NCBI GenBank assembly: GCA_014904985.1
Contig: MU129084.1
Location: forward strand, 38,551-102,550
Direction: 5' to 3'
DNA from: Hydnum rufescens UP504
Taxonomy: Eukaryota > Basidiomycota > Agaricomycetes > Cantharellales > Hydnaceae
DNA length: 64,000 nt
Position numbers and translations under genes: made by a program. Below are positions 1-19,044 of the stretch, piece by piece (positions within the stretch are counted from its first letter, which is position 1; the number at the start of each line of letters is the position of its first letter). Below the pieces are notes generated by a model. That model made no database searches. It saw nothing but the letters and a program-made list of their open reading frames with translations, and was not told the DNA's origin.

Positions 1-226
1 TTAAATTACATAATATATTGATGATATAATTAATATATTATAAAATACATATTACTTAATATACATGATATCCTAATTAACTATTATCTAATTAATTACA
101 GAATCCAGGTTGCGTGACCACACCAGCAAGAGGGGGCACCCCTGCCCCAGACCAACTAGAGGGTGGGGAGGGGGCTAGGAGGCCACCAGAGGGGAAGGGG
201 GGCCCAGGGTGTGCACTTGGGGGATC
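1..226. other. AT-rich leader, no gene
   Basis: The first ~105 bases are almost pure A/T with repeated TTAATTA/ATATAAT words, followed by a G-rich stretch. A similar AT-rich tract precedes another hairpin-repeat unit near 18,110-18,235, so this is probably part of the same repeat landscape. I see no coding region or RNA gene. Confidence 0.5.
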
Positions 227-369
227 CTATAATGGGGAACAGTTGGTTAGTTGAAAAAATCAATAGTAGTGCAAAAAGGGCAGCCAGAGGCAGCCCTTTT
301 TGCACTAGAGTAGCTAAAATGCAATAACATACCTTAACACCACCACCCAGTCTATACTGGGTGTGGTGG
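227..369 (-). repeat. Double-hairpin intron-like repeat, copy 1
   Basis: Hairpin B (267-307) pairs AGTGCAAAAAGGGC with GCCCTTTTTGCACT. Hairpin A (340-369) pairs CCACCACCCAG with CTGGGTGTGGTGG, with a small bulge. Read on the minus strand, hairpin A is followed by a donor-like GGTATGT (GT ending at 332). Then come hairpin B, a CTAAC branch-like motif (246-250 on plus) and an acceptor-like ATTATAG ending at 227, giving a 106-nt intron-like segment. The layout matches the other copies in the window. Confidence 0.75.
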
Positions 370-659
370 CTTGTCCTGGGCTCTTGGTAGATGGAGTGTG
401 GTGTCGCACAACAGAAAAAAATTGCCGGCAGTTGCCAGTAAATTGAACCCAGGACTCAACGCCGGCAGTTGCCCAGTTTCAAAGGCAAGCCACCTGCTGC
501 TATGAAAAAGCCTAAATGCGGTAACTAGTAGACCAATATAAAAGGGTAGATTAGATAATACTCCATAGATCATATCCCATTACATAATACAGTGATTCCT
601 ATTCAAAAAAGCCTAAATGTGGAAATTGGATGAGGCACACCAACTAAATATGGAGCAGA

Positions 660-1092
660 TCATTCTGAAATTTGGTACATAATTAGGGTATTACTTCTAA
701 GCAAGATCATATCAAACTTTCAGCAAATTAGTGCAGGGGTTATGGAGATATCAGGAAACAAGTCTGAACATTGAAAATTCATTTCTCCCCTTGCAGAATA
801 GCTAGGGAGACTTGAAAATTTGCAAAAAGCCATACAATATAATGTACAAATATGTGCCAAAATCTGCCCAATCCATGCACTTTAAGGGAAGAATCTACAA
901 TAGGTACCAGAAGCACTGGAATTGCTGAAATGTAAGAGTGTGAGGATCATTCTGAAATTTTGGCACATGATTATATACTGTTTTAGGTGAGAACATATCA
1001 AAACTTTAGCCAGATTTATGCAGTAAATCACAGGAGATTATAAGGAAACAAGTTTTAACATTGAAATCAATTTACTCTCCCCACAGACAGGT
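660..1092 (+). repeat. Two diverged direct repeats upstream of the transposase
   Basis: Segments ~660-800 and ~948-1,092 are recognisably the same sequence about 285 bp apart. Both contain TCTGAAATTT, a GGCACAT/GGTACAT word, ATATCAAA-CTTT, GGAAACAAGT and a CTCCCC tract followed by ACAG/GCAG. They are too diverged to be recent. They may be sub-terminal repeats of the DDE element that starts at ~1,220, but no matching copies were seen on its 3' side. Confidence 0.5.
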
Positions 1093-1219
1093 ATGGACTT
1101 GAAATTTGACATGGGGTATTAATCATATAATTAAATGGAACATGTGCCAAAAATCAGCATTATTCTGTTTACTTCTTAACGATACAACTCCTCTTTTTCC
1201 TTTTTTTTATTTTGGTGCT

Positions 1220-3552
1220 ATGGAGGGAGTGAAAGGATCATACTCTGGCTGTAAAATTAATGGTCAGAGAGCTCCGCGCTCCATCTATAGGGACAGAAAA
1301 CGTGTTCTAGAGGAACAAAAAGCTGCTGAGGAGAACCATAGGAACCCATTGAGCCTATACAATTGGCTGCAGCACCTCCCACCAAAAACACAAACTCGGA
1401 ATCCGAATGTAACCATAGACCTCACAACAGAGTCTGGCGCTGACAATGATGACACAATAACATTTGTCCCTGCACCATCTGTCATGTCATTGTTGGTGCC
1501 AGAATCAACCGCTGCCTTGCCATCAGAAATAGGCAAGACTCGTCTTGACACCTGGGTGGCATTATCCCCAGATGGCAACAGGACCTCTCACGATGAAGAG
1601 GTTCACTCACTTTATGAAAGTCCATCTCACAACACATCCACAGCATCCTCATTGATGACGAGCACATTTTGAACTCACCCCTCACAACAAAAACACACCA
1701 ATGGCGATTTGTCCCATCTCCAACAATCAAAGAGGCTCAAGCTGCGGCAAAAGGCCTTGAAAAAATCCTCCGACCACCTTCGTCCCACTGGTGCAGGTCA
1801 TATGGACCCCAACCTTGACCTGCTTACCCAGGGCCGCCTCGAATTGATGCATATGTTTCTGAATATATATGCAAACGACTCTGTGGCTTGGGGCAATGGT
1901 TGGATTGTGGCATCACTCGTAGCTGCCACAGCCGCTGGAAAGGGACAATGGTTAGCCCGACGCCTCCGAGAATGGTGTCATGCTTACATTAAGGACTCTA
2001 AAAACCTTCCGACAAATGCATATGGGAGGTGGAATGTTTCGATGCTTGTTTCCGACGAGGATCTGGCCCAAGACATCACACTCCATCTTCAAGGTCTTGG
2101 GCCATTCATATCTGCTCTGGATATTGTTCGGTATCTTCGATACACCAGAAATAAAGACTCGCCTTGGCCTCGAAAGAAGTATCTCACTCAAAACTGCTTC
2201 ACGGTGGATGCGGCTTATGCAGTACCGCTGGGGAAAGGAGCCAAAGGGACAATATGTTGATGGCCATGAACAGGATGATGTGGTTACGTACCGACAATCA
2301 ACTTTCCTCCCAGCATGGGCCGTAGTCGATGCAAAGACCCGCAAATTTGATGATGGCAGTAATCTCGACCCGTTGACACCTGTATCAAGTCGCCCAACCG
2401 TCATCTGGAATCATCGATGAGTCGATCTTTTATGCACATGATAGACGAACGTTACGATGGGTCCATGCCAGCGAAACTGCAAAGCCTTATGCAAAGGGCA
2501 AGGGTACATCCCTTATGGTTGCCGATTTCGTTTCCCCCGATTATGGTTGGCTTCGAGAGCCAGGTGACGCCGATGCTGATGGGGCTCGAGTATTTCTAAG
2601 GCCTGGAAAAGAGCGCGATGGCTATTTCATGTGCGATGAAGTTCTTGCCCAAGTGACGAAAGCAATGGACGTCCTAGACAAGCACTATTGGACGGAAGAT
2701 CATGTATTCGTATATGACAATGCGACAACCCACAAAAAGTGTGCCGACGATGCCCTTTCTGCTCAACATATGCCCAAGTATCCACCCAATCCCAATGGGA
2801 AAGGGAGGAAAAAGGGCGAGAACTGGGGTGTTAAAGTCCCACTATTGGGTCCCAATGGCAATGTGATTCACGGTTCAGATGGGAAGGTTGTCAAAATTTT
2901 CAAGAAGATGGCGGATGCACAATTTTCCGACGGGAGACCCCAACCACTTTACTTTCCGGATGATCACCCACAATACCCTGGCTTATTCAAAGGGATGGCA
3001 GTGATTCTAGAAGAGTGTGGGTTTTCCAATGCAAGGTCCCTCAAAGCCGAGTGCAAAGGGTTCAAATGTGCACCTGGGATAACGGATTGCTGCTGCCGAC
3101 GTATCCTCTTTAACCAACCCGACTTTGTTGGGGTAAAATCCCTTCTGGAAGATGTGTGTGAAAGGCGGGGCTATAGGGTAATATTTCTACCAAAATTTCA
3201 CCCGGAGTTGAACTTCATCGAGATGTGTTGGGGGTATGCAAAGCGGGTATATCGCCAGTTTCCTATTTCATCTGATCCAATGATATTGGAGAAGAATGCT
3301 CTCGCAGCCCTGGAGTCCATACCGCTGTTGTCCATGCGATGGTCAGTCTTCTTGTATTTAACCTCTATTGTCACTAACATTCTGTTTAGGTTTTCCAACA
3401 GGTCCCTTCGCTTTATGGATGGATATAGACGTGGACTTAATGGGTCCGAAGCCATTTGGGCAGTCAAAAAGTACCGCGGCCACTGCTGCCTCCCACCTGA
3501 ATTAGTACATGAGATAGAATTCGAGCGGAAAAAAGCTGCTGCCACCTCATAG
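1220..3552 (+). pseudogene. DDE transposase (IS630/Tc1/mariner-like), frame-broken
   Basis: A DDE-superfamily transposase of a type common in basidiomycetes. The N-terminal region starts near 1,220. The catalytic part has VADFVSPDYGW (first Asp, ~2,521), YDNATTHKK (second Asp, ~2,713) and PKFHPELNFIEMCWGY (~3,190-3,240), resembling the PxLNPIExxW block of IS630/Tc1/mariner. The protein is not continuous: an in-frame stop lies at 1,670, and the frame changes near 2,130 and at ~2,415, where one extra base separates IWNH from DESIFYA. Joined by eye, the segments read as one ~700-residue protein, so the element is either decayed or hit by indel errors. No convincing terminal inverted repeats were found. 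The exact superfamily is uncertain; the DDE call is firm. Confidence 0.75.
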
Positions 3553-4466
3553 AGCAATAAAATATGGTTTTACTGGGGCTGTTTGCCGTTCTAGCGCATA
3601 ATTTAGATCATAGGGCCATAAGCGCGACTTCGATGATTGTGGCGACGAATTTTGGCCTCACGTGACAGCTTACATAAGTGAAATGGACAGTGGATGAGTA
3701 TGGGTGTCCACTATCTTAGATGTATTTGGATGATCCAAGTGTGCATTTTCAGGGCAATTACATGGATGGAAGGCTCTGGGGAGGAAATTGTTGTTTAGGG
3801 GGGAGGCCTGTGGAGCACTGCCTAAATGGAGTCCAGTTTGGCTGATATCTTGCATGTACGATCCCCATATATGTATTAACTCAGTGGTGCAATATCAGAG
3901 CCACCTCTGGTCTATATTTTATGTAATTCACTTTTGATCTTCCTCCCCCTCCCCCACAATTCCAGCCACTCCCACACATCCAATTCATTCCATTTTCAGA
4001 TATAGTCAGGGTTATAATATTATAAGCCTATTCCACCTAGTTCAGGTCTATTTTGAACTGTTTAACATTCATGATAGCTTTTTGTTCTCTTTTTACCTGA
4101 AAAGGGGGTTGAATACCTAGAAGTAAACAGAATAAGCTGATTCTTGGCACATGTTTAGCACCTTGGTCAGTCACCTAAGCCTACCTAATTAGGTACATTT
4201 CCGGGCCAGATAATGGACCTAACTAGGTCCCTTCATTATTACGGCTGAAATCAGCCTTTTTATGATTTTCACTTCAGTCAACCTTCTCGCCCAGAGTTGG
4301 CCGAAACTGGGACTTAAAAGATCTTAGACTTGCAGCGGACTATCTGGGCTTATCAGGGGTGACCACGATTATTTATTATTATCATACCAGTTGTGGGGTG
4401 GTGGTTCTGTTCTTATTTACTTGTATATTTATTTATTTATTTAAAAATTCAATAAACAAAAACACG
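3553..4466. other. Intergenic, no gene recognised
   Basis: No coding region is supported. The sequence holds the palindromic words GGACCTAACTAGGTCC (~4,216-4,231) and CCTAATTAGGTAC (~4,185), which recur near 10,030 and 19,757. It becomes AT-rich toward 4,440. It is probably old transposon sequence. Confidence 0.4.
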
Positions 4467-4494
4467 CCACACACCTGCTAGGGCAGGTGTGTGG
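4467..4494 (-). repeat. Orphan hairpin A
   Basis: A perfect 12-bp stem (CCACACACCTGC / GCAGGTGTGTGG) with a short loop. It is the hairpin A half of the double-hairpin repeat, but no hairpin B lies at the expected distance on either side, so it is a partial copy at the edge of the 4.5-5.5 kb array. Confidence 0.7.
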
Positions 4495-4566
4495 TACTAT
4501 CCACCATTCAGAGGCGGGTTCAGGGAGGGGGCACAGGGTGTCAGGCTGTATCTGTTGTATGAGAAT

Positions 4567-4714
4567 CTGGAATAAGTTATAATATATAAGTTAGAAATTC
4601 AAAGCAGTGTGAGAAGAGCAGCTATTGCTGCTCTTTTTGCACTGCTTGCATATACAAGTCCAAAAAAAAATACTTACTTAGTAGCACCACACACCCATCC
4701 TAATGGGTGTGTGG
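4567..4714 (-). repeat. Double-hairpin intron-like repeat, copy 2
   Basis: Hairpin B spans 4,604-4,645 (19-bp stem, three mismatches, GCAGC-ATTG-GCTGC tip). Hairpin A spans 4,684-4,714 (ACCACACACCCAT / ATGGGTGTGTGGT). On the minus strand a full GTAAGTA donor (plus 4,671-4,677), TTCTAACTTA branch motif (plus 4,588-4,597) and TTATTCCAG acceptor (ending at plus 4,567) bound a 111-nt intron-like segment around hairpin B. This is one of the best-preserved copies. Confidence 0.8.
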
Positions 4715-4857
4715 TGCCTTGCATTGTTTCATTGGGGGTTTGGCCAGCTTGTCGATTGCCACTGAGGGGGGCATGGCTTGGCAGTTCGCCGTTGGATGGG
4801 TTGCAGGTTATCATTCGGGTGGGTTGTCATTTCAGTTTGGATTTAAAAAAAATTTGA

Positions 4858-4963
4858 AGTGACACAAGGAGCAGCACAAGCTGCTCCTTTTGCATCACTG
4901 TACATATAGAAATTTAAAAAAAAAACCTTGGAGTACACCCACTTTGGTGGGTGTGTGGTACTC
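4858..4963 (-). repeat. Double-hairpin repeat, copy 3 (splice-like signals lost)
   Basis: Hairpin B spans 4,858-4,899 (AGTGACACAAGGAGCAGC / GCTGCTCCTTTTGCATCACT, two-base bulge). Hairpin A spans 4,931-4,963 (GAGTACACCCA / TGGGTGTGTGGTACTC). The donor position reads AAGGTTTTTT and no acceptor is clear, so the intron-like signals have decayed while both stems remain. Confidence 0.65.
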
Positions 4964-5123
4964 ATTTTGTACCCCGGTTGCGTAGGTTGTATTCAGGTTT
5001 GCGTACAGGGCCTGGTCATCATTTATGCATGTGGTTTGTTTGGCATGTGGGTTGCCGGTCTTGTGTGTTTGTTTGGGGGGTGCGGGTCTTGATTGGGTGT
5101 TGGTTGGGGTTCAGATGAAAATC

Positions 5124-5250
5124 TAGGATCATAAATAATATGTTAGTAAAAAGGGGAGGGGAAAGAAAGCCACACAAAAGGAGCAGTGTCTGCTCCTTTG
5201 CGTGATCATACTTAGCTTAAAATTACCACACCCACCGAAGCAGGTGTAGT
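5124..5250 (-). repeat. Double-hairpin intron-like repeat, copy 4
   Basis: Hairpin B spans 5,171-5,204 (CACACAAAAGGAGCAG / CTGCTCCTTTGCGTG) and hairpin A 5,225-5,250. On minus, a perfect TACTAAC branch motif (plus 5,143-5,149) and TCCTAG acceptor (ending at plus 5,124) are present. The donor reads AAGCTAAGTATG instead of GTAAGT. The same variant donor occurs in the copy at 18.5 kb, suggesting a subfamily. Confidence 0.7.
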
Positions 5251-5395
5251 TCGTCTGTTGTTGTTGGCAGGTTTCGTTTGGCGTTTGTTGGTTTGGTGGG
5301 TCGCATTTGTGGCTTTCGTTTCATTATTTTCGGGGGGAGGGGGTGGGGCAGGGGGCTTTGCTCAGTGGGTCTTCATTTTGCTGTTAGTTGATAAC

Positions 5396-5512
5396 CTATA
5401 ATAGATGTATTAGTTCAGTAAATTAAAACCAGCACAAAAAGAGCAGCATTTGCTCTTTTTGTGCTGATGGGGATGCACTTATCTTATATTGAACCACACA
5501 CCCGCTGCAGCG
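5396..5512 (-). repeat. Double-hairpin intron-like repeat, copy 5 (hairpin A truncated)
   Basis: Hairpin B (5,430-5,466) has a perfect 16-bp stem, CAGCACAAAAAGAGCA / TGCTCTTTTTGTGCTG. Hairpin A starts at 5,494 but stops at the loop (CCACACACCCGCTGCAGCGG), where the repeat ends. On minus the acceptor ATTATAG (ending at plus 5,396) and branch AACTAATA are intact; the donor is AAGATAAGT, one base off GTAAGT. Confidence 0.7.
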
Positions 5513-6150
5513 GTATAGAAGAAGGATTGGGAGCTCCGATGACTGTCAAATCAAACTCTGGTTCAGCCAGTGTGTAGATGGGAGACTGTATTTCTGTTTT
5601 TATTCAATGGGCTGGTTTGCTCTGATGGTTGATCACTCTCTAACAAGTTAGGTATGGTATTCAGTGGAGGATAAGATTGTGGTATGGACTAGCTATAGTC
5701 AATGATATATCGTGGGATGCTTGTGAAAGGCTTATACGTGTTGTATTGAACTGTTTACTGCTATTTGTGGGTACCTATTTGTGTCCTCCTGGTCAAAATG
5801 CGGATTCTAAAAAGGACTCTAGACTAGTTTAAGCTTGATTTAGTATGTCAATGTGTTTCTTTTTTCTTCTGACCTAACTTTGTTTTTACTCACCTTTCCT
5901 TGGATGTCCAGCAACTCTAACCTTAGGTCCTGCAACTATCCTTGGCTCAGTATTTCGCATAGAGGGCTTCCAGTGACTTAGTCTTAACAACCTTGTATAT
6001 GACTTAGCTCCAGATGGCTTTAGATCAGTACTCTCTTAAGATGCAAGCAGATTTGTAGACAGTAGTATATTCCAGTAGTGAGAAGATGATGGGGGGATAC
6101 AGGAAAATCTACCAGCTTTTATACCTTTCTGAAGGTGGCTGTGTTTAAAG
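5513..6150. other. Intergenic, no gene recognised
   Basis: No coding region or repeat recognisable from the rest of the window. The sequence is of ordinary composition. Confidence 0.4.
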
Positions 6151-6154
6151 AATA

Positions 6155-6376
6155 TGACTCACTCCTAGGTGAGTCATATGTGAGAACAATAGGGTTGTCA
6201 AGGAGGGTGAGTCATTCATAAAGTGGTTGCATGATAGGTGAGTCATTCATAAAGTGGTTGCAAGATAGGTGAGTCATTCATGAACAGAACAAAAGGGTTG
6301 CTAAGAAGGTGTTATCTCTCATAAAGTGGTTGCAAGGAGGGTGAGTCATTCATAAACAGAACAAAAGGGTAGTCAA
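6155..6376. repeat. Tandem repeat carrying six TGAGTCA sites
   Basis: Degenerate ~31-bp units of the type GTGAGTCATTCATAAAGTGG followed by TTGCAAGATAG, with a longer variant containing AACAGAACAAAAGGG. The 7-mer TGAGTCA (or its complement TGACTCA) occurs at 6,155, 6,170, 6,208, 6,239, 6,270 and 6,342. The first two form a palindrome (ATATGACTCA...TGAGTCATAT). TGASTCA is the classical Gcn4/AP-1 bZIP site, but nothing here shows regulatory use. Confidence 0.75.
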
Positions 6377-6559
6377 GGGAGTGTTATCTTTCTTATCTGT
6401 GAGGTTCTAGAAGTTATTTGTGGCAATGGGAGATGAAATAAAAGGATATTTCCGAGTTCTTGGAGATTAATTTGTTTGTAGTCCAGTGGTTAAGATGTTT
6501 TTGTTGCTGGTTGATAATGGGGACAAGTGCATGGGATGGGATTTGATGCAGAAACAACA

Positions 6560-7005
6560 GTTTACATCCGTAATAGACGTTCTTGGTATCATTCGATGCG
6601 GATTTCTAACAGCTTTCTGGGCGTGGTGGTTCCGAGCAGATCCAGTGTAAACTGACAGAGAAATTCGTTTTTTTACTGATGGGTGTTGATTCTGATAGTA
6701 ATATTGTTCTGTAGAGTTCAGTTTTGATCTGTTCTTCACGTGCTCAGTACCGTTGGATGCGGAATTTTTATATCTTTCCAGGAGCAGTTGTTCCGAGAGG
6801 ATTGGATGCGAACTGACAGAGAAATTCGTTTTTTACTGAAAATCCCGGATTTTGACAGTAATATTGGTCTGGAGAGTGCATTTCTGGTCCGTTCGACTTG
6901 TGTTTGGTACCATTCGAAAGGTATGAATCGTGGCTTTCTGAGAGTTATATGGGTGTACCTCTCCGATCAAAACTGACGGAGTTATAGAACGAATTCGATT
7001 TCTGT
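6560..7005 (+). repeat. About three degenerate ~160-bp tandem units
   Basis: Recurring blocks in order: GGTATCATTCGATGCGGA, GTTCCGAG, AACTGACAGAGAAATTCGTT, TTTTTACTG, and GATAGTAATATTG or GACAGTAATATTG. They start near 6,590, 6,750 and 6,908, with the third copy shortened and diverged. No open frame is conserved between units. This is a decayed satellite-like array. Confidence 0.6.
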
Positions 7006-7231
7006 GCATAGCCATAATTGATTTCGTAATAGGTCACATGATCATTCCAATGGCTGGGATCAATGGATATTTGCATTTTCTGATACTGGATGTTTTTATC
7101 TTCCACAGCGGGTGTGTGGTTCATGTGGGCACCTCTCGCACTTTCTGTTGGCATCATTTCGTTGGGCGTTGTCTCATTGGGTATGGTGTCGCTGGGTGTG
7201 TGCTGTCATTGGGTTTGGTGTGGTGGGGTTT

Positions 7232-7511
7232 GGCTGGGTGTTGTTTGGCTGGGTGTTGTTTGGCTGGGTGTTGTTTGGCTGGGTGTTGTTTGGCTGGGTG
7301 TTGTTTGGCTGGGTGTTGTTTGGCTGGTGTTGTTTGGCTGGGTGTTGTTTGGCTGGGTGTTGTTTGGCTGGGTGTTGTTTGGCTGGGTGTTGTTTGGCTG
7401 GGTGTTGTTTGGCTGGGGTGTTGTTTGGCTGGGTGTTGTTTGGCTGGTGTTGTTTGGCTGGGTGTTGTTTGGCTGGGTGTTGTTTGGCTGGGTGTTGTTT
7501 GGCTGGTTTTT
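7232..7511 (+). repeat. 15-bp minisatellite, ~19 copies
   Basis: Unit GGCTGGGTGTTGTTT repeated about 19 times. Variants of 14 bp (GGCTGGTGTTGTTT, near 7,322 and 7,441) and 16 bp (near 7,411) shift the phase. Because the unit is five codons and stop-free, open frames run through it in several frames on both strands; these are artefacts, not genes. G/T strand asymmetry is extreme. Confidence 0.9.
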
Positions 7512-7670
7512 GGCTGGGTGTTGTTACTTGGGTTTTGTTTGGCACGGTTCTGTTTGGTGCAGTTTCGTTGGGTGTGCCTTTGTTTGGTGCGTTCAGGGTT
7601 CACGTGTTGTCACTGGGGTCCTGACCAATCAGGGCTCATTGTCGGGGGGTTCTCATTTGATGCCATACTA

Positions 7671-8539
7671 TGACCTAGAATAAAAGTTGGTCAGTAAAGA
7701 ATTCAAAGTAGTGCAAAAAGAGCAGCTTTCGCTGCTCTTTTTGTGCCATTGTATCTACTAGCATAAAAATAAAAATAAAACTCACCTTTTGACCACACAA
7801 CCCGCAGCAGCGGGTGTGTGGTCATTGGTGTCTGCCTTTCTAGGTGGTTGCCTCTTCAGTTTGGTGGGTGTATGCAGTCAAGGGGGAGTGCAACTCAACA
7901 CCGGCAATTGCCAGAATTCAAAAGGTGCCCAAGTGCTGGCATGGCAAGCAGGATATGGATGAATAATAAGGAGACAAATGAGCAATAGATGTTAGATAAT
8001 AAATATTTTGTGCCAAAAATGATAGAGAACAATAATAATAAGGCAGACTTCCATAAGGCACTATATACCAACATTGCAAAGTGGGTTGGATCATTTCTGT
8101 GGGCCAGAATTGAGCCAACCCACTTTGCAATGTTGGTATATAGTGCCTTATGGAAGTCTGCTTTATTATTATTGTTCTCTATCATTTTTGGCACAAAATA
8201 TTTATTATCTAACATCTATTGCTCATTTGTCTCCTTATTATTCATCCATATCCTGCTTGCCGTGCCAGCACTTGGGCACCTTTTGAATTCTGGCAATTGC
8301 TGGTGTTGAGTTGCGCTCCCCCTTGACTGCATACACCCACCGAACCGAAGAGGCAACTGCCTAGAAAGGCAGACACCAATGACCACACACCCGCTGCTGT
8401 GGGTTGTGTGGTCAAAAGGTGAGTTTTATTTTTATTTTTATGCTAGTAGATACAATGGCACAAAAAGAGCAGCGAAAGCTGCTCTTTTTGCACAGGTTTT
8501 AAATTTTTTACTAATACTTTTATTTACTATTCTAGGTCA
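7671..8539. repeat. Large palindrome (~430-bp arms) built on two hairpin units
   Basis: The left arm from TGACCTAGAATA (7,671) to GCAAAGTGGGTTGG (~8,089) is the reverse complement of the right arm, CCAACCCACTTTGC (~8,115) to TATTCTAGGTCA (~8,539). Only scattered mismatches separate them, with a ~25-bp central loop. Each arm carries a complete double-hairpin unit. Left arm: hairpin B 7,711-7,746, hairpin A 7,791-7,823. Right arm: hairpin A 8,381-8,413, hairpin B 8,458-8,493. The intron-like limits are 7,675-7,785 (minus) and 8,419-8,535 (plus), both with GGTGAGT donors and TATTCTAG acceptors. A transcript through it would form a >400-bp duplex. The ~106-residue frames found in each arm are mirror images and unlikely to be genes. 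Confidence 0.85.
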
Positions 8540-8663
8540 AGCTGTCCTACCCATGAATGACAACCACATGAATGGAAACATGCGAACGAGTGAACAAGCA
8601 AGTGAATGAATGAACAATGACAACACCCACAGGAAGCCATGACGAAGAGCAGGAAAACAGAGA

Positions 8664-8786
8664 GCCACACACCCGCCTCAGTGGGTGTGTGGCCATATAA
8701 GGTATGTATTATGTTTTACTGGTTTTAGACACACAAAAAGAGCAGCAGCAGCTGCTCTTTTTGTGCAACCTTTGATTTCAACTAAC
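8664..8786 (+). repeat. Double-hairpin intron-like repeat, copy 8, split by solo LTR
   Basis: Hairpin A spans 8,664-8,693 (GCCACACACCCGC / GTGGGTGTGTGGC), followed by donor GGTATGT (GT at 8,702). Hairpin B spans 8,731-8,766 and the branch motif AACTAAC ends at 8,786. The LTR at 8,787-9,400 lands exactly after CTAAC. The 3' remainder (ATATGCCATTCTAG, ending 9,419) continues after the duplicated CTAAC, so the unit was intact before the insertion (~99 nt intron-like segment). Confidence 0.8.
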
Positions 8787-9400
8787 TGTCAGGGCCACGC
8801 TGCGATGAGAGCACCAAACAAATATAAACACAGATAACTCCGACTAAGTCCGGTGCGAGTCCAGCTAAGTCCGGGAGAATCCAGGCAAGAACAAGATAAT
8901 GAGATTGAGACGGAGAGGCAGTCCAGCAGCGCGGAAGGGACTAGGTGGAAATGAGCACAGTGGTCCTTAAGCTCATGGAGTCGACTGGGAAGTACTTGGA
9001 CTGTAGTCTGGAGTAGAAGCGGAAATCCTGAGATTAACATTAAGGGAATAGGTACAGTGAGGCTAACCTGTAGTCTGGAGTAGAAGCAGAAATCCTGAGA
9101 GACCAAAGCTGAATCTCTGGATTTCGCCCTGGACTACTTATACATAGTTCCTATACTACGAGGGATTGATCACTTAATGAGAGGTGGTTACAGGGGGGCA
9201 GGCACAAGAGGGGGAGCAGGCAGGGGACGGGAAAGTGGAGGGGACAGGGACAGGGCCAGGGGTAAGTGTGTGGGAACTGGAAGTAAAGGAAATGAGGAAA
9301 TGAAGGGGAAATGAAACGGAGACAGGGACAAACCGGAAACAAACCAGAACAAATCCGGAAACAAATCTGGAATTAACCGGGAAACGGACGAACTCTGACA
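8787..9400 (+). mobile_element. Solo LTR (family 1) with 5-bp target duplication
   Basis: Starts TGTCAGGGCCACGC and ends CGAACTCTGACA (TG...CA ends), 614 bp. It is flanked by CTAAC on both sides (8,782-8,786 and 9,401-9,405), a perfect 5-bp target duplication typical of LTR retrotransposons. It has no internal coding region. It contains two spaced copies of a TGTAGTCTGGAGTAGAAGC / GAAATCCTGAGA block and a CTTATACATA stretch after GACTAC. Related copies are at 12,980-13,651 and 18,668-19,019. Strand is inferred from the order of these blocks by comparison with family 2, whose CTATAAATAC looks like a TATA box. Confidence 0.85.
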
Positions 9401-9574
9401 CTAACATATGCCATTCTAGGTCAACATATCCCACCCTAATGCACGAAATCATGCAGCCACAAACCTAAACCCACGGGCCTGCCAAGACCCCATGAAACCC
9501 CGCACCCCATTACACATGAATGTGCCAACGAACAAAGGACAACGCACACCTGAAGCCACAGGGGAAATGAGGGA

Positions 9575-9707
9575 GCCACACACCCGCTGCGGCAGGTGTG
9601 TGGCACATAAAGTATGTGTATTTTCAGTAGCTACAAATGCACAAAAAGAGCAGCAGTCACTGCTCTTTTTGCGCAAGTTTTCTAAACTAACTTATCTTTT
9701 ATTTTAG
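9575..9707 (+). repeat. Double-hairpin intron-like repeat, copy 9
   Basis: Hairpin A spans 9,575-9,604 (GCCACACACCCGCTGC / GGCAGGTGTGTGGC), then AAAGTATGT (GT at 9,612). Hairpin B spans 9,639-9,674 (GCACAAAAAGAGCAG / CTGCTCTTTTTGCGC), then an AAACTAACTT branch motif (CTAAC 9,687-9,691) and acceptor TTTATTTTAG ending 9,707. The intron-like segment is 96 nt. The segment before hairpin A is similar to the one before copy 10, showing tandem origin. Confidence 0.8.
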
Positions 9708-9843
9708 GCCAAGACGCCCCACCCCAGTGCGCAAACCATGCAATCGTGAGCCCAAACCCTGCATACGAACATGTACCGCAATGAGAATGAAAATGGGTGA
9801 AGGACCGAGGATGTGCACATGAAGCTGCAGAGGAAATAAAGAG

Positions 9844-10003
9844 GCACACACCTGCTACTGTGGGTGTGGTAATCTTTAAAGTAAGTATATTTACATGTCC
9901 GACCATGCAAAAGGAGCAGCATAGGCTGCTCCTTTTGCATTGGTTTTCTTTTATTTTTATTTTTATGAACACCTCGGTCAGCCAGTTATGACACCTACCT
10001 TAG
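9844..10003 (+). repeat. Double-hairpin intron-like repeat, copy 10
   Basis: Hairpin A spans 9,844-9,870, donor GTAAGT is at 9,881, and hairpin B is a perfect 16-bp stem (ATGCAAAAGGAGCAGC / GCTGCTCCTTTTGCAT, 9,905-9,940). The acceptor CTACCTTAG ends at 10,003. The branch motif is weak. The upstream spacer (9,708-9,843) aligns by eye with 9,420-9,574: both start G(T/C)CAA, CCCACCC, ATGCA and AAACCC in the same order. Confidence 0.75.
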
Positions 10004-10300
10004 GTCGAAAAATGAGGCATTTTTAATACCTAACTAGGTCCCAAGCAATATGAAACATAATTGGGTCCAACTCAGGGTCTTTGATACCTGGTGGCTTACA
10101 GTCTTTGGGCCCAACTGTGCCCAACTTGGGCCCATTTGTGGCTACCTTGGGCCCAACTTGGGGAACTTGCACACTTGAATGGCAGATCCTTAAACCTCAC
10201 TAGAAACCTAACATTCATGTTGAAAACTTAGAACACTATTAACGATGACAAGAGCAATGTATTATGATAGGAATGGAATGATATGGACATGAGTAGTCTC
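10004..10300. other. Intergenic, no gene recognised
   Basis: Contains ACCTAACTAGGTCC (~10,030) and several CCCAACTTGGGCCC-type palindromic words. No coding potential was seen. Confidence 0.35.
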
Positions 10301-10765
10301 GTATCTACAAGAGCCCAGCACCATTTCCTGCCCAAGTAGCAAAGCTCATTTGAAGTGTGTCAAAGTCTGCAGCACTGAGATGAACCTGTGCACTGGGCAG
10401 TGAAAATGAGGCCTGCGAGGGTCCATTTGGGTGAGTGCTCATCATGTCAGGACCAGAGTTGGGAGTGGAAGATGATGACGCTGAGCTATCCCTAAGAACT
10501 TGTATAGGTGGAGACGTAGACGTAGGGAAATTATCCAAGGGTGTTGAGGCCCTGAGTTCATTGAATATGTTGGCATCCTACATAGTTGTGCGACCCAGCT
10601 GTTGACCAAAGGTACTGTGGCTCCCACATGGCTTGATGCAGAAGTTGTCATGAGAAAAGGTGGAGGGCTCTGGTTAGCCTGAGCATGGATGAGCGAGTTG
10701 GGAGAAAGAGGAGTTGGTGACTTGTTGAGTTCATCTGGAATTGTAGATGTCGATCTTCTTGGGAG

Positions 10766-12430
10766 TCATAACTTCCTTCTCCTTCTCACTGGCCTCTCAT
10801 CCTCCTCTATGTCACTGTCATGCTCCCCAGCATCCTCAGCCACATGACCAGGCCCAATTCCTGTAGAGTCCTGACTTCTACCCAATTCACTATACTTCCG
10901 TTTCCCCATTGTGCTCTCCACATTCTCCTCCCGGACTTCATCCAGAACTGGAATGTTGATTCCTTCTCCCCCCAGCATGGCACCCCCAGACCAGTCGTTT
11001 GAAGCTCTAGCATGATCTACACTCCTGATGGTATGCTGGACTCGCCCACGGTGATCGATCATGACTGGCAACATGGACTCACCAGAGTCGAGAGGAGACT
11101 CTGGGAGTTCTTCTAGGTGGATTTGATGATCTTCAGGACGAGTAAAGGCCTTGTACATCTTGTTCCAGTGGGACGTTCGTACTTATTGGCTATCCAACTC
11201 CCTAAGAGTGGGAATTCATCCACAGTAGGAAGCCCCTCCAACCGAAGTCGATTAAGCCTCAACAACTTTGGTATCTCCATCCACTTCATTACTTTGACCT
11301 TCGCCGGCATATAGGGGCCCAGGAGCTTGCGCATTCTCTGTGCACAAGCAGCTTTCGTACGGTGCATGTCTTGTGTTTCCATTATACACTGCCGGTGTGA
11401 CTCTCCTTCTTCCCAAGCCTCAACCTCCTTCGACCATAGTTGCTGAGCAAGAATGTATTTGTAGACGTCACCAATGTGCTGGGTGGGTCAAAGTGAGACT
11501 TGTACCATGATTCCATTTGGGGTGAGTTCATAGAGGAGGTATTCTGACTATGAGCAGCCGACAAAGACGCCATATTGGAGACCATCATGTAGAAGGTATG
11601 GATGCCGGTGTTCAGCAAAGTTTTGCCATCCGCATTCCACCAGCACTGTGTCTGTTCCATGAGCTTTGCCACATCCCCTCCTGATTCTCCTTTCTTCTTT
11701 CCTACCACAGTCTTCCTCCCACGAAGTTCAGATGTCAAACACTCTGTCTCTGCTGCCCAGGCTTCAGTATCACTGCCACCCATATTGTTTTTGAGTTTTG
11801 CATATGAGTTGCGCACTTCTGACTTTGACACAAACTCATCTTTCTCTATGTTCCAGAGATCAGAATGAGAAATGAAGGGAAATTGTGACATCAAGATCAT
11901 GAACCTTTGAGAAGGTTGAGGTATGCATTCCAAGGATTCCCATGCTGTCGGTGCTCACTCGTATTCAGTGACCATTTCCCAATTCTCATCAAGTGTGTGA
12001 CAGTACAACCCAGGTGCTGGGCACATGGTTTAACTTTCGTCTCTTCAAACTGGCGGAACATTTCTACAACTTCATTGATTTCGTCATTCCGGAATTTGTG
12101 CCTTCGACGTTGTATGTCTGCAGTATCATCTCCATCCTTGCCATCTTCATCACTATGATCATCATCCTCATCGCAATCATCAAGGGAATCATCAAATGAC
12201 ACCATTTGGCATTGAGATTTTTGAGACTGGGAAGGGGGTGATTGCCAACCAGGGTTCGATTCATCAGAATCATGGTCTCGATGTCCTCTGGAGTCTTTCA
12301 CCCTAGGGCGGTCAGGGGGTTCCAGCAATGGTCGGTGAATGGGGATGGAGTGGTCAACTGGGGACTCAGGGGACCATCCATCCCACAAACCGAAACCCGG
12401 ACCAGAGGGTGGGGTGACTTCCCGAGCCAT
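10766..12430 (-). pseudogene. Uncharacterised transposon-associated ORF, frame-broken
   Basis: Not recognised by family. Read on minus from the first well-placed Met at 12,430 (MAREVTPPSGPG): a Pro/Asp-rich start, an acidic run (DDSLDDCDEDDDHSDED), a helical segment (NDEINEVVEMFRQFEETKVKP) that could bind DNA, and NPWNAYLNLLK. The frame then slips near 11,935, again near 11,385 and again near 11,165. Continuing pieces include ACAQRMRKLLGPYMPAKVKV, then an acidic tail ending in RPVRRRRKL at 10,766. The pieces are collinear and lie directly downstream of the KDZ-type gene on the same strand, so it is probably a second gene of that element or its neighbour. Frame breaks may be decay or sequence error. 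Confidence 0.4.
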
Positions 12431-12516
12431 GATTTTATCACTCGTTGCATTGGTGGTCTCTAGTCTGGAGTACCGGATAATAAGCAACAGTGTAGATATA
12501 ATCTCCAATAAACTAC

Positions 12517-15342
12517 TCACTTAATTCGCACTTCCAGGGCCTCCACAAGACGTTGTAACTTGGTTCCAAAGTAGACTGGATTCAAGCTATGCTTTTCAAC
12601 AAAGAAGATGAGCCCTTCTACAATCTCGAGAGTACCACTGGATCCTCTCCTGATGCCTTTCACAAGTACATCCATTGGTACATCCACATGGAGCACATGA
12701 TTAAGAACTGGATCCAGATTCTCCCAGTCCTCATCACAGTCTTCGCCACCACCTGTGAAGGACAAAGGTATAGTCTCCGGGTGTCTCGCATCCCAGAGAC
12801 ATGTAGCCCTATCGTCCTTCTGATCCCATTCAGGGACTTTCAGAGGAAGTTGGTGGGATAGTTTCTGGCCTTGATCAAGCAACGCTAATACATCAGCAGA
12901 TGTGAGGGCACGGTCTTTCTTTGCAGATGTAATATCCAGGGATTTGGCAAGTTGGGTGAAGACGAGGGCAGAATACGCCTGTCAGGGCCACGCTGTGACG
13001 AGAGCACCAAACAAATATAAACACAGATAATTCCGGCTAAGTCCGGTGTAGGTCCGGCTAAGTCCGAGAGAATCCGGGCAGGAATGAGATAACGAAGATA
13101 GGAGGGGACGGAGAGGCAATCCAGCAGCCCGGAAGGGACTAGGCGGAAATGAGCACAGCGGTCCTTAAGCTCGCGGAGTCAACTGGAAAATACTCGGACC
13201 TGTAGTCCGGAGTAACAGCGGAAATCCTGAGATTATGTAATACGAATACAGAATACATGAAGGCTGACCTGTAGTCCGGAGTAACAGCGGAAATCCTGAG
13301 AGACCAAAGCTGGGGTCTCTGGACTTCGCTCTCGGACTACTTATACATGATGACTATACTATGGGGAGTGATCGCTAAACTGGAGGTGGTTACAAGGGGG
13401 ACAGGAACAGGAACAGGAACAGGAACTTCGGCCAGGGGGTGAACCGGAAGCAATGGGAAATGAAAGGGAAATGAAAAGGAAATGAAACCAAGATAGGGTT
13501 GGACCGGAGTCAAACCGGAATCAAGCCGGAAGCAAAGTGGACTTGGGCGAGGGAAATAAGTGGAGAACCGGACTGGAGGTGGGCGGACGAGGACCGGAGT
13601 TGACCAGAGAGTTAGACCGGAGTAGACCGGAGTTGGGGGCGAACCCTGACAATTCCAGGGATCGTAATCCATACTCTTGCTTCTGCTTTCTGGCCAATAC
13701 AACTGCACTATTCACAACTTCCTCTGCAGAACTGACCAAGACCTGATAAAATTGCAGTGCTTTCCCAAAGCGACGCCATAGTGTATCCTAAGAAAAGCAT
13801 GTAAATTGCAGTAGACCTTAGAAAATTAAAATGCGCTACATACATCACCACCCAAGACATATCCTTGCTTGTGCAAAAATATTTGTAAGGAGTCCGTCCA
13901 TCCCTGGATATCTGGTTGCTGTACCTGGAAGACTGTTGATGTGAAATCAAGAAGATCCAGATTGACTGCGAGTGTTGGATATACTGGGGCAGATGGGAAA
14001 AGACTGAGTTCGAGTAGAAGGAACACTGCAGGGCGACAGTTGCAAACGGTTAAAGTCATCTCATGAATACCTACAAAAAAAAGACATGAGATAAGGGCAT
14101 GAACTACGAATTTACATGTTGACCCATACTTTTGACATGAATGCAAGTAATACTTAGTGTCCTGGCAGAACATTGAGCGCTGCCATCACACACTGGTAAA
14201 GGGACATCAAATGTGTCAGCAGCATCCCAATTTGTAGCTGCAACTTGTCTCAAGAATGGGACAATAAGACAAGGAATGAGTTCATTCCACTGCTGAGCTA
14301 GGGCCACACGTGATGTTGACGCATGCGACTTGTGTTGCTTTATGGGTGCTGGAGCATTAGCCACGAATGGCTGATTTAGTCCGTCATCTTTGAATGTCAT
14401 AATAGGGTCCCAGGAAGCAGAATTGGCATGGGGCAATGAAGAATCAGTGGGAGTGGGGTTGGCATTATCGAAGGGTGCCAAAACTGGATCCTTGGCCTGG
14501 TCTGATGACGAAGTCAGGTGGGGAGATAAACATGCAGCATCCTTGATCCGATATAGCCATGTCTCGCCAAAATTAACATCCTGTTGTAGTTGACCATGTC
14601 TTTCATGAAGCCTTGGTTTTCGAGGTAATATAGGTGGAATGCAGATTTTATCAGCTGGGATGGTATTGGGAGGGATTATAGGATCAGGGGACTCAATAGG
14701 GATGCCCATTGTCTCGAAAAATGTTGAGCCGAAGCCAAGTCATTCAAGTTCTGAGTTCGCATTGATACCATTGGAGCATCGTGGACGTTTTTGGCTCCGA
14801 CGAGAACGAGCTGTGTCTGTCAATGGAGGGGCCTCTTGCAGATAATCGGTAGACAGTGAGTGGCATGCATTACGAACTAAGTCAGGAACCAATGGGTCAT
14901 TAGACCCAGCACTCCCAAGTTCACGCCTTCTCTTTCGAGATCAATACAATGAAGGCTGCGTTGCAGGATGGGATAGCGAGGCTGCAATAGCCAGAGTTTC
15001 CTGGTAGTGGGGGGCGGTGTGTGGATTAGACAAGCCACTGGCTGAAGGTCGGATTGTTGAAGTGCAAGGGTTTGATATGTGAAGGATATGGTTTCCATCC
15101 TCTGGAACACGTGGGTGCTTGGCGATTTCCCTATGCCAACAAGATGACTTCTGTAGCTTTGATGAGGCAGCAGCAGCAGGTGGTAGTGTCTCAGACATAG
15201 ATGAATTTGAGACGGGGAGGTTATGGCTTCCATTATGTTGCGTGTGCAGATTCTTGTTGATGGGTACCCATTCGAGGGAGTTCGAGCTTCCTACATGACG
15301 CCACTGGCCACCCCCTCGTTGTGGATGACTGCTCATAGACAT
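12517..15342 (-). pseudogene. KDZ-transposon gene with CxC1-like cysteine cluster, split by an LTR
   Basis: Read on minus. The N-terminal part (from ~15,342) is low-complexity Ser/Pro-rich with stops between pieces. At 14,709-14,104 come RVALAQQWNELIPCLIVPFL and a cysteine cluster (VCDGSAQCSART...). At ~14,060-13,835 come TVCNCRPAVFLLLELSLFPSAP, VYPTLAVNLDLLDF and LQIFLHKQGYVLGGD. This order, with Leu-rich LFPSAP and PTLA blocks, is the pattern of the CxC1 cluster domain of basidiomycete KDZ (Kyakuja-Dileera-Zisupton) transposases. The coding part then runs into the solo LTR at 13,651 and resumes after it with AYSALVFTQLAKSL to a stop near 12,517. The downstream catalytic half of a KDZ transposase was not found, so the gene is interrupted and incomplete. 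Confidence 0.6.
12980..13651 (+). mobile_element. Solo LTR (family 1) inside the KDZ-type gene
   Basis: Same family as 8,787-9,400: starts TGTCAGGGCCACGC and ends CGAACCCTGACA, 672 bp. It holds the GTAGTCCGGAGTAACAGCGG block twice (~13,203 and ~13,269). Flanks are ATACGCC and ATTCCAG, so no 5-bp duplication is visible; flanking mutation or inter-element recombination could explain this. It interrupts a reading frame that resumes on the other side, so it is younger than the KDZ copy. Confidence 0.8.
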
Positions 15343-16860
15343 AGTTAAGGTTGATGCTGATACTCATGCACGTGAGTCCAACAATACAGAACTCAACTAT
15401 GAGCAAAGCCAGCGCATTTCGCAGCAGCTCTCGATAAGGTGGACTGAACGGGGTACAACCACCCATTGTAATAAGGATGCTTGTGAATCAGTGAGCAGTG
15501 GGCAAAACAAGATCGCATGAAAACGAGAATGCAAGGCAGGTACAGAACACATGAGAAGACATAGAGGAATGCAAGAGAGATTTGAGCAGTATTTAGGTGC
15601 CAGAGCACCAAGGAGTTAAGAAAATGGTACGCAGACGCAATTGACAAGGCAATGAGGCAAACACAATGTTGCACAACTGATTCCGCCGGATTTTGCCCTC
15701 ACCAAACAACACGCTACTCATCATAGGAACCCGAGAGGATATCATGGATCTCTCCAACATCGCTCCACAACACAGATATATCCCGGTGTACCCCAGAGAC
15801 CTCATGACGAAGTGTGGATAACTCCAACCACACAGAAGTGAGCTCAAGTCTTAATTGTTCCAGCGCCATTAGCACCTATGTATCATAGAAATAGTGAAAA
15901 ATGACGATAGAAATTATCAATGATAAGAAATTCACACCTTAGACATGTTTGTGTCCGTTTCCATCATAGCGGAAGGCAACGGTAATGGCATACTAGAGGT
16001 AAACCTGACCGCAGACTTGACAGGGGATGACGACTTCGGGGTTGGGTGGGATGGTAACGATGGCACAAAGGACCGGGGCATGTGCCTCGAGGGGGAATCT
16101 ATATGGCAATAAAGAGATCCTTGTTTAGTCGAAACTTCAAAATGACGATGACGAACGTATACATACTGGGGTGTAGAAGGTCCTGATCACACCTGGCTCC
16201 ATCATGACTGCCATCACCTGTAGCCAACCTCCCGGCTTCTGATGGATTATCATCGGATGGTTGGTGAGCCTAGTTGGTGGGGGATTGATCATTGAACACG
16301 GCGAGTGTCATGCAATGGCACAAACCCAGACTGAGCGCATGAAATATTAGCAGATGTGAGAGGTGTAAAAATAGTGGCAACATACATAAGAATCCGCATG
16401 GATTACTTTTACCACAGGCATAGAAGCTTTTCCCTTATTCTTGCCCTTTGCAATTAAGCAGAACTTTGCTGTTGCATGAGCTTGAATCAGGATCAAAGGT
16501 CTCAGAAAATCCACAGTGATAAGATACTTGCCAAGAACAGTCACAATGGCACAGCGGCTCATTGTTCATAAATTTGACATTGTGCTTCAGTACCAAGTTC
16601 CCATGGTCAGAAGGACGTGTTGAGGGAAAAAGAACATACAACATTTCTAATTTTGCATCCACTTGAATGGATTTCGAATGGAGGGGGTTCAGCAGGCAGC
16701 TCTAGAATAGTATACGGTGGCTGGAGTGAAAGTAATGGTTCATATTGCCTCAAAATGGGGCCTAGGTGATGGACTCACAAGCAAGATGTAAAGCAAGATC
16801 GGCAAGATGTGTCCTAGGTTCAGGAACTCAACCAAAAAAACAACGAACATGGGGCAAGTG
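15343..16860. other. Unassigned, possibly upstream part of the KDZ element
   Basis: No open frame here resembles a known family. Short minus-strand frames (15,593-15,847, 16,435-16,662) have no recognisable motifs. This may be the 5' region of the element to its left. Confidence 0.3.
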
Positions 16861-16869
16861 GTCCTATAG

Positions 16870-17056
16870 TGAGGCTAGTTATTCATAAACACAATATTAG
16901 TATAGCAAACCAGACAGTAGGATTCTTTTATTGCAAAGGAGCACCCAGACAGGTCAGGGAAGGTAAAGTTAGGGGGGGTAGGGATTGGCCCCCTCTAAAA
17001 CCGTCCTTCAGCTGGTCAGACCCATCCTTTGGCCTGTTGGACCCCAACTCCAACAC
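16870..17056 (-). mobile_element. Probable 3' LTR start of the copia remnant
   Basis: Immediately after the polypurine tract (GCTTGAGGGGGAG on minus) the sequence begins TGTTGGAGTTGGGG, a usual LTR start, and contains AATAAAAGAAT (~16,930). The far end is not defined and no 5' LTR is present in the window. Confidence 0.45.
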
Positions 17057-17062
17057 TCCCCC

Positions 17063-18000: not shown

Positions 18001-18455
18001 GTATAGATGTATCAAACACAGCATGGTACCATCTAATTCATGCATAAACATGGTAAGTTACCACTGGCAAGTTACCATGCCTGATATATCAGGATATAAT
18101 TACTACATTAGGTATTTCCATATTGGGAATTATTAATTACACAATATTAATTATATAATTTACTGTTTAATTATACAATATTCACTATATTATTTACAAT
18201 TTAATATTAGATTAATTCTGAAAGTACTATACCTTAAGATGTGGTCTAAAGCAGGCAGATTGACTCACCTCTGGTTGCACAAGTACCATCATGCAGATGT
18301 GGAGTTCCAGGTTTCAGTCACGCAGTCACAAGTGTTGGTTGTGTGGCTATGGGCTTCCTTTGCTTGGCTGGTTGTGTTTTGTGCACTGGGGTCACAGTTC
18401 CGTTTGCTGGGGTTCCAGGTCTTGGGGTTCAAAGGAAAACCAAAATAATAAATAT

Positions 18456-18588
18456 GTTAGTAAGGAAAAAAGAAAAGAAAAGCCCCACAAAAGGAGCAGC
18501 ACATGCTGCTCCTTTTGCATGTGACCATACTTGTACATGAATACTTAGCTTAAAGATCACCACACACCTGCTGAAGCAAGTGTGTGGT
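18456..18588 (-). repeat. Double-hairpin repeat, copy 11
   Basis: Hairpin B spans 18,486-18,523 (CACAAAAGGAGCAGC / GCTGCTCCTTTTGCATGTG). Hairpin A spans 18,559-18,588 (ACCACACACCTGCT / AGCAAGTGTGTGGT). On minus a perfect TACTAAC (plus 18,456-18,462) is kept, the donor reads AAGCTAAGTAT as in copy 4, and the acceptor appears mutated to TTTTGG. Confidence 0.7.
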
Positions 18589-18667
18589 TGTGGGTTGTTG
18601 CTTGAGGGGGGTGTTGTTCACAGGTTTGGTTTGTAGATTTTGTTTGTGGGTTTTGTTTGTGGGGTTT

Positions 18668-19019: not shown

Positions 19020-19044
19020 NNNNNNNNNNNNNNNNNNNNNNNNN
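19020..19044. other. Assembly gap (25 N)
   Basis: 25 consecutive N. The sequence changes abruptly from a family-1 LTR to unrelated DNA, so the true gap length and even the join are uncertain. Confidence 0.95.

What the first reader, a model, noticed from the sequence alone, without database searches (positions are those of the whole stretch)
4467..10003. Dispersed double-hairpin units that look like introns with built-in stem-loops
Seen directly: ten B-A units in the window (267-369, 4,567-4,714, 4,858-4,963, 5,124-5,250, 5,396-5,512, two in the palindrome at 7,675-8,535, 9,575-9,707, 9,844-10,003, 18,456-18,588), plus one split by an LTR at 8,664-9,419. Each has hairpin A (ACACACCCGCTGC-type stem), 5-15 nt later a donor-like GTRNGT, then hairpin B (GCAAAAAGAGCAGC / GCTGCTCTTTTTGC), then CTAAC/CTAAT/CTGAC and a YAG. 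Seven units keep a full GT donor; eight keep the branch motif and acceptor or most of it. Stem sequences vary by compensating changes (GAGCAGC vs GGAGCAGC on both sides). Spacer 'exons' of 150-190 bp are similar between neighbours but have stops. Splice-like signals kept in order through such divergence suggest a spliced non-coding hairpin RNA, or introner-like mobile introns. Functional meaning is inference.
Basis: partly seen in the sequence, partly recalled or inferred. Interest (0 to 1): 0.88.

Follow-up and report, generated by a model that had tools for sequence, protein, structure and literature searches.

The report
Transposon built of hairpin-bearing introns
A mushroom genome carries hundreds of copies of a jumping element without a gene of its own, whose two arms read outward from a central palindrome and look like strings of small introns and exons, each with its own RNA hairpin; if these RNAs are really made and spliced, it would be an unusual cargo for a transposon.

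Summary
The double-hairpin units are real, and their splice-like signals are not chance. In 139 A-B units (window 1-20,000 and 24 loci), a 5' splice motif lies between A and B in 103 (antisense 8, shuffles 17.0) and branch plus acceptor motifs follow B in 114 (antisense 7, shuffles 18.8). Stems covary (0 of 500 shuffles). Strict splice sites are changed or gapped in 7.3% of comparisons, other intron sites in 25.2%. The genome has about 5,400 A and 6,400 B hairpins. They form two outward-reading arms of a non-coding DNA transposon with a central palindrome, ends CASSYTGGTCAGYCA and 8-bp target duplications (perfect in three elements). Some of its end types resemble ends beside KDZ transposase genes, so a non-autonomous KDZ-type element is likely. 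Exons are U-poor and show no clear coding signal. Best reading: divergent, multi-intron, hairpin-studded non-coding RNAs carried by a transposon in a Hydnum-like mushroom. No RNA data were available, so transcription and splicing are inferred, and the benefit to the element is open. The introner reading is not supported; the spliced hairpin RNA reading is.

The parts
4159..9969 (.). hairpin-intron transposon copy of the window; left end CACCTTGGTCAGTCA at 4159; right end not found, broken at 9970 by the end of another element
   Evidence: end motif scan, (no target duplication found for this copy); arms by R1
4159..4235 (+). left terminal sequence of the element
   Evidence: same type of end as in L032 and L020
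7696..8508 (.). central inverted repeat (arms 404 nt, 96% complementary, 5 nt between), origin of the two arms; the 22-nt core palindrome of other copies is absent here
   Evidence: one search finds no core in the window; other copies
4414..4498 (-). partial unit at the outer end of the left arm
   Evidence: R1 43.4 bits
4561..4718 (-). A-donor-B-branch-acceptor unit, left arm
   Evidence: R1 109.1 bits
4818..4962 (-). unit, left arm
   Evidence: R1 54.5 bits
5117..5253 (-). unit, left arm
   Evidence: R1 67.3 bits
5390..5522 (-). unit, left arm
   Evidence: R1 67.5 bits
7669..7825 (-). first unit of the left arm, in the central inverted repeat
   Evidence: R1 119.8 bits
8379..8541 (+). first unit of the right arm, in the central inverted repeat
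   Evidence: R1 127.2 bits
8661..8799 (+). unit of the right arm, its intron interrupted by an LTR-like insert; acceptor beyond the insert at about 9401-9420
   Evidence: R1 97.4 bits; read
8787..9400 (+). LTR-like insert (TGTCAG...CTGACA) at the branch motif, flanked by CTAAC on both sides
   Evidence: related copies from 12979 and 18668
9572..9713 (+). unit, right arm
   Evidence: R1 113.1 bits; row of alignment A1
9840..9982 (+). last unit of the right arm; where its acceptor would be lies the end of another element (9970)
   Evidence: R1 82.7 bits; end motif
221..370 (-). unit of another, fragmentary copy
   Evidence: R1 79.5 bits
18434..18591 (-). unit of another, fragmentary copy
   Evidence: R1 97.8 bits
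9970..10050 (+). end (CACCTCGGTCAGCCA) of a second element of the same end type, with a gene transcribed toward it

Best explanation
It is a non-autonomous DNA transposon, most likely moved by a KDZ-type transposase acting in trans. SHOWN by sequence: defined ends, 8-bp target duplications, a central palindrome, and two arms that read outward from it. Each arm is a row of modules: U-poor exon without clear coding signal, hairpin A, a 5' splice site about 8 nt later, about 28 nt, hairpin B, about 18 nt, a CTAAY branch site, about 20 nt, YAG. Splice sites and stems are held by constraint while the rest drifts. INFERRED: the central palindrome is a two-way promoter; each arm is transcribed outward and spliced; B folds out between donor and branch, so that a 105-nt intron works like a shorter one of the usual fungal size (size recalled); A marks each exon end. 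INFERRED WITH LESS CONFIDENCE (about 0.25): the gain for the element is efficient serial splicing, which keeps its transcripts from stalling spliceosomes and feeding RNAi and keeps the locus transcribed and open to transposase. That the hairpins are docking sites for a protein is about as likely.
For: Splice motifs strand-specific; among 75 non-redundant units selected for having donor and acceptor, GTGAGT/GTAAGT/GTATGT in 71; intron median 105 nt over 87 units. Strict splice sites changed or gapped in 48 of 656 comparisons against 1170 of 4634 at other intron sites, p = 8e-6 even against half the rate. Covariation 0 of 500 on all five measures. Loops differ by strand: four-base B loops GNRA 28 sense, 2 antisense of 107 (non-redundant 15 and 1 of 57); A loops UNCG 19 and 4 of 110 (12 and 3 of 62). 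Both hairpins in the predicted fold of 73 of 75 units. Genome counts within 3 mismatches: A 5,386, B 6,408, reversed controls 0; core palindrome 152 + 176 within 1 mismatch, control 0; ends 634 + 661, controls 1 and 2. Perfect 8-bp duplications in L011, L022, L032, 7 bp in L020. All 32 units over 60 bits in L011, L022 and L032 read outward. The end beside a KDZ gene, L035, matches 9 of 17 other ends tested at 67-75% over 63-93 nt; of 40 genome places like that end, 9 have a listed KDZ gene inside within 6 kb, all 9 with the 3' side toward the end, and 1 has one outside.
Against: No transcript, junction or small-RNA data. 36 of 139 units lack the donor motif and 25 lack the acceptor motif. G-U mismatches do not significantly exceed A-C mismatches in the stems (A 29 to 21, B 24 to 17), so the stems alone do not show selection on RNA. 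In single-sequence folds the donor GT is unpaired in only 5 of 75 units and the acceptor AG in 15, though with no consistent partner. The KDZ link rests on ends: the ends of L020 (both), L032 (both) and window 4159 do not match the L035 end beyond the terminal motif; no hairpin element with a KDZ gene was seen; and the two ends around the C2 KDZ gene share no target duplication. Pairs overlap, so their p values are optimistic. Most copies look decayed.
Confidence: 0.68

Rival explanations
1. The hairpins act as DNA: palindromic binding sites or cruciforms for a transposase or recombination factor, and the splice-like words are incidental or inherited.
For: Stems are nearly perfect palindromes; no significant G-U over A-C excess; other transposons carry arrays of binding sites (recalled).
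Against: Splice words are strand-specific, in fixed order and constrained; loops are strand-biased; exons are U-poor (11.6%) and introns U-rich (37.6%).
Confidence: 0.15
2. Host-gene-like array: each intron releases a small hairpin RNA (B) after splicing, as snoRNA host genes do, or feeds a small-RNA pathway.
For: One structured RNA per intron in tandem exon-intron units; loops of stable type.
Against: No Rfam family matches the arrays in the window and 8 loci searched; B stems are short for Dicer (recalled); A hairpins stay in the exon and need another explanation.
Confidence: 0.2
3. Introner-like elements: the unit itself is a mobile intron.
For: Fungal introners have internal symmetry (PMC8469720, passages); units are many and similar.
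Against: Units lie in transposon arms, A is outside the intron, none found in 18,643-64,000 of the window. Host genes elsewhere in the genome were not scanned.
Confidence: 0.04
4. Decayed protein gene with repeated exons, or a passive array of young repeats without constraint.
For: Copies decay by CpG mutation (200 of 251 changes between L011 and L013). In one search the L020 right arm had a stop-free stretch of 221, above its shuffle maximum of 172; after correcting donors the longest printed is 165, and no shuffle was run on that.
Against: Internal exon lengths fall 8, 10 and 8 of 26 in the classes 0, 1, 2 mod 3; in the other arms the longest stop-free stretch stays within the shuffle range; splice sites evolve slower than their surroundings.
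Confidence: 0.1

Closest known systems
KDZ (Kyakuja-Dileera-Zisupton) DNA transposons
   Same: CA..TG ends, 8-bp duplications as in Zisupton (PMC12730594, passages), terminal sequence of some hairpin elements shared with KDZ-gene copies here
   Different: no transposase gene; palindromic centre and hairpin-intron arms; the word hairpin does not occur in the main text of that paper
Fungal introner-like elements and Hypoxylon stwintrons
   Same: many similar spliceosomal introns with internal symmetry in a fungus (PMC8469720, passages)
   Different: those sit in host genes; these sit in non-coding transposon arms, with a second hairpin in the exon
Tm1-HH elements of root-knot nematodes
   Same: transposon copies without coding potential, one with a known mature transcript, that carry a conserved RNA hairpin (PMC3169594, passages)
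   Different: one histone hairpin, Mutator/Foldback-like ends with 9-bp duplications; no arrays described in the passages
Foldback transposons
   Same: long inverted repeat, internal repeats
   Different: here the inverted repeat is central and the terminal repeats are short or imperfect
Intron-hosted small RNA arrays (snoRNA host genes; recalled)
   Same: tandem exon-intron units with one structured RNA per intron
   Different: no Rfam match; mobile; hairpins also in exons

Membership tests
KDZ DNA transposon (non-autonomous member) | 8-bp (Zisupton) or 7-bp (Kyakuja) target duplication | tested here: met
   three elements with perfect 8 bp, L020 with 7 bp
KDZ DNA transposon (non-autonomous member) | CA..TG ends | tested here: met
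KDZ DNA transposon (non-autonomous member) | terminal sequence shared with KDZ-coding copies | tested here: inconclusive
   met for L010, L011, L019, L022, L029, L031 (67-75%; KDZ gene beside 9 of 40 such places); not met beyond the terminal motif for L020, L032 and window 4159
KDZ DNA transposon (non-autonomous member) | encodes KDZ transposase | tested here: not met
   no KDZ in the selected ORFs scanned; 2 of 100 listed centres have a listed KDZ gene within 5 kb, and in the one fetched (L031) it lies beyond the element's end. So not filed as an autonomous KDZ
hAT transposon | hAT transposase linked to these ends | not tested
   90 hAT dimer matches in the genome, linkage to ends not examined
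Introner or introner-like element | whole intron inserted in host genes at new positions | tested here: not met
   0 units in window 18,643-64,000; units in transposon arms; rest of the genome not scanned for this
Foldback element | long terminal inverted repeats with subrepeats | tested here: not met
   inverted repeat is central; the two ends share about 15 nt, or a longer imperfect stretch in L011 and L022
snoRNA or other known RNA host array | match to a described RNA family | tested here: not met
   window and 8 loci: no array match at gathering score
Spliceosomal intron | 5' splice site, branch site, acceptor in order on one strand | tested here: met
   87 of 139 units have all
Spliceosomal intron | observed splicing | not testable with these tools
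   no RNA reads held

The most novel reading that the evidence does not exclude
The element's working product is a spliced, non-coding, hairpin-studded RNA made in two directions from one palindrome, kept by selection because the RNA (exon hairpins A, intron hairpins B, or the act of serial splicing) helps the transposon persist. That would be an RNA-cargo class of DNA transposon.
Probability: 0.35. Interest if true: 0.9.

Novelty: new variant of a known kind. Interest (0 to 1): 0.72.

Why it matters
About 6,400 B hairpins in a 63-Mb genome, many of them in decayed copies, are a large natural set of near-replicate introns with compensating stem changes. If they are spliced, it becomes directly testable how RNA structure placed between splice signals affects splicing, and whether introns protect transposons from RNAi or expose them to it. 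It would also show a DNA transposon whose conserved content is spliced non-coding RNA and not protein. In Cryptococcus poorly spliced transposon transcripts trigger siRNA (PMC5851062, passages), so strong introns could be an escape.

Tried and rejected
Coding arms: in-silico spliced arms gave no convincing long frame. Searches picked some donors inside hairpin A (GTGTGK); one search corrected this, so intron and exon lengths of 17 and 44 are not used. The exon and intron base composition was made with those donors and is slightly blurred. reran 17 of the 22 arms and added L022 and the two window arms; the five dropped had 0, 0, 0, 1 and 2 introns.

Selection on RNA through G-U tolerance: not significant. 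A conserved pairing of the donor: single folds pair it often, but the alignment fold shows no such pairs.

An autonomous copy with hairpins: the C2 region between a CAGG-type and a CACC-type end holds a KDZ gene and a second gene family but no unit, and its two flanks share no 8-bp repeat, so it is not shown to be one element.

Known RNA family: none for the arrays (one tRNA in L020). Other hosts: no exact match of the A or B patterns in viral contigs; two matches of B in bacterial metagenome bins, one place each, in a collection of 257 billion bases, taken as chance and not followed. Seven literature searches for this combination listed no description of it; only titles and abstract beginnings of the first 1 to 15 papers of each list were seen, and the library holds open PMC papers only.

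Protein gene models crossing the junctions were not searched: no suitable frame. No structure prediction was run.
Full report
OBSERVATION. The window lies in a 63.19-Mb genome of 539 contigs.

ANATOMY OF A UNIT. In the first 20 kb of the window and 24 loci, a script found 170 A and 251 B hairpins and 139 neighbouring A-B pairs. A donor motif GT[AG][AT]G[TG] lies between A and B in 103 of 139 (8 on the opposite strand; 20 shuffles: mean 17.0, maximum 28); none of the 103 is a word of hairpin A itself, and without such words the antisense count is 4 and the shuffles 13.3. A CTRAY...YAG motif follows B in 114 of 139 (7 opposite; shuffles 18.8, maximum 30). Both are in 87; 75 of these are non-redundant. 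In these 75 the donors are GTGAGT 36, GTAAGT 20, GTATGT 15, others 4; branch CTAAC 36, CTAAT 29, CTGAT 6, CTGAC 4; acceptor TAG 70, CAG 5. Over the 87, medians are: A to donor 8 nt, donor to B 28, B to branch 18, branch A to acceptor 20, intron 105. The 87 and 75 were chosen for having the motifs, so their base frequencies are not a test; the sense, antisense and shuffle counts are.

CONSTRAINT. For 82 directed pairs of related units in different loci, each unit with its best partner by shared words in the downstream exon, splice-motif sites outside CpG-like contexts differ in 44 of 879 (5.0%), other unpaired intron sites in 455 of 3180 (14.3%). With strict sites only and gaps counted: 48 of 656 (7.3%) against 1170 of 4634 (25.2%). 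Because the first unit of a pair was required to have the motif, the fair bar is down to half the background rate; the difference still holds (p = 8e-6; decoy words under the same condition 11.7-25.2%). Pairs overlap, so p is optimistic. Stems: 95.5% of cells paired, 18 of 30 pairs with changes on both sides, 0 of 500 shuffles as high on all five measures. G-U versus A-C mismatches do not tell RNA from DNA, but the loops lean to one strand: four-base B loops are GNRA in 28 of 107 on the sense and 2 on the antisense strand, A loops UNCG in 19 and 4 of 110. Shared descent of units weakens this as an independent count.

NO CLEAR CODING SIGNAL. Exons are U-poor (11.6%) and introns U-rich (37.6%). 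Internal exon lengths under 420 nt fall 8, 10 and 8 in the classes 0, 1, 2 mod 3 (26 exons). The longest stop-free stretch stays within the shuffle range in all arms but one (L020 right, 221 against a maximum of 172; 165 after donors were corrected). Exon pieces fold no better than shuffles (mean z 0.05, 74 pieces), units far better (mean z -8.93, the first 30 of 75 units).

THE ELEMENT. Many loci hold a central palindrome with core CAATTCCCTAAATAGGGAATTG; 152 + 176 matches genome-wide within one mismatch, reversed control 0. In 8 of 11 centres the two sides stay 85-100% alike in each of four blocks of 80 nt outward and then fall to 34-71%; the second centre of L016, L020 and L033 fall earlier. 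TATA-like stretches lie some 70-110 nt out on both sides. The first predicted donor is 412-458 nt from the centre in 13 of 19 arms with a known centre (the others 316, 317, 511, 769, 812, 1304). The ends carry CASSYTGGTCAGYCA: 634 + 661 exact places, controls 1 and 2. Among 24 loci and the window, three elements have both ends and a perfect 8-bp duplication: L011 2211-7519, L022 271-6441, L032 1115-5650 (up to 3 mismatches allowed in the end motif). L020 1509-8377 has both ends and a 7-bp duplication, GATGTTC. All 32 units over 60 bits inside the first three read outward (11 in L011, 10 in L022, 11 in L032; L022 has no core match, and the gap between its arms is taken as the dividing point). 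Loci such as L016, L030 and L033 also hold truncated and joined copies where arms of neighbouring elements break the pattern. Alignments between copies are collinear over several units (75.6-79.6% over 1.1-1.9 kb, L011 against L009 and L016).

ABUNDANCE. A pattern: 5,386 places, B pattern: 6,408 places within three mismatches, reversed controls 0. Copies decay at CpG: L011 and L013 differ at 251 aligned sites, 200 of them CpG transitions, and keep 237 and 64 CpGs, which points to DNA methylation.

RELATION TO KDZ. The genome has 154 KDZ (PF18758) matches among 150 scored of 584 candidates, 0 in 14 control genomes. The end beside a KDZ gene on contig C2 (L035) was compared with 17 other ends: 9 match at 67-75% over 63-93 nt (L010, L011 both ends, L019 two, L022 both ends, L029, L031), while the ends of L020, L032, L018, L036 and the two of the window do not. 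Of 40 genome places like that end, 9 have a listed KDZ gene inside within 6 kb, all with the 3' side toward the end, and 1 has one outside (the KDZ list is partial, so 9 is a floor). Kojima 2025 (PMC12730594; abstract, passages, section 3.2.1) gives 8-bp duplications for Zisupton and 7-bp with CA..TG ends for Kyakuja.

MECHANISM. Shown: ends, duplications, divergent arms, constrained splice signals, covarying hairpins. Inferred: two-way promoter, transcription, splicing, mobilisation by KDZ in trans. Guessed: benefit through efficient serial splicing, or through protein docking on hairpins. In Cryptococcus, introns are needed for expression and poorly spliced transposon RNAs are turned into siRNA (PMC5851062, passages), which makes a splicing-based escape plausible; nothing here tests it.

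VERDICT. Observation right, spliced-RNA reading favoured, introner reading not supported, and the larger frame is a transposon. Interest is high because the arrangement was not found described in seven literature searches (listings only) and because one RNA-seq mapping decides its central claim.

Noticed in passing
window 8787-9400, from 12979, from 18668: Three related LTR-like copies (the first TGTCAG...CTGACA); the first sits exactly at a branch motif with CTAAC on both sides.
   Followed up: partly
window 7228-7543: 21.5 copies of a 15-bp unit inside the left arm, outward of its first unit; its reverse strand is A/C-rich like other exons.
   Followed up: no
window 1103-3552: Frames of a broken transposase, one with a DDE_3 match, outside the hairpin element.
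   Followed up: no
window 9970-15700; L014, L018, L027: Coding elements with ends CACCTCGGTCAGCCA and a gene family without a Pfam match, transcribed toward that end; 150 matches or more genome-wide. By eye, without count or control, several copies lie 11-26 kb from a KDZ gene in divergent orientation; others lie in the same or convergent orientation.
   Followed up: partly
L014:4100-5530 and L027:3505-7249: Hairpin arms next to that gene: after it in L014, before it in L027. Chimeras, nested insertions, or a sign that arms can be untranslated parts of coding transcripts.
   Followed up: partly
L011:2211-2700 and ends of L010, L013, L019, L029: Terminal module with GGGGCCCC palindromes, an AT-rich stretch with AATAAA-like words and a variant B hairpin (AAGAAGAGCAGC).
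   Followed up: no
L020:3261-3333: A tRNA gene (Rfam) within the span of a hairpin element.
   Followed up: no
L037, L038: One match each of the B pattern in two bacterial metagenome bins, probably chance.
   Followed up: no
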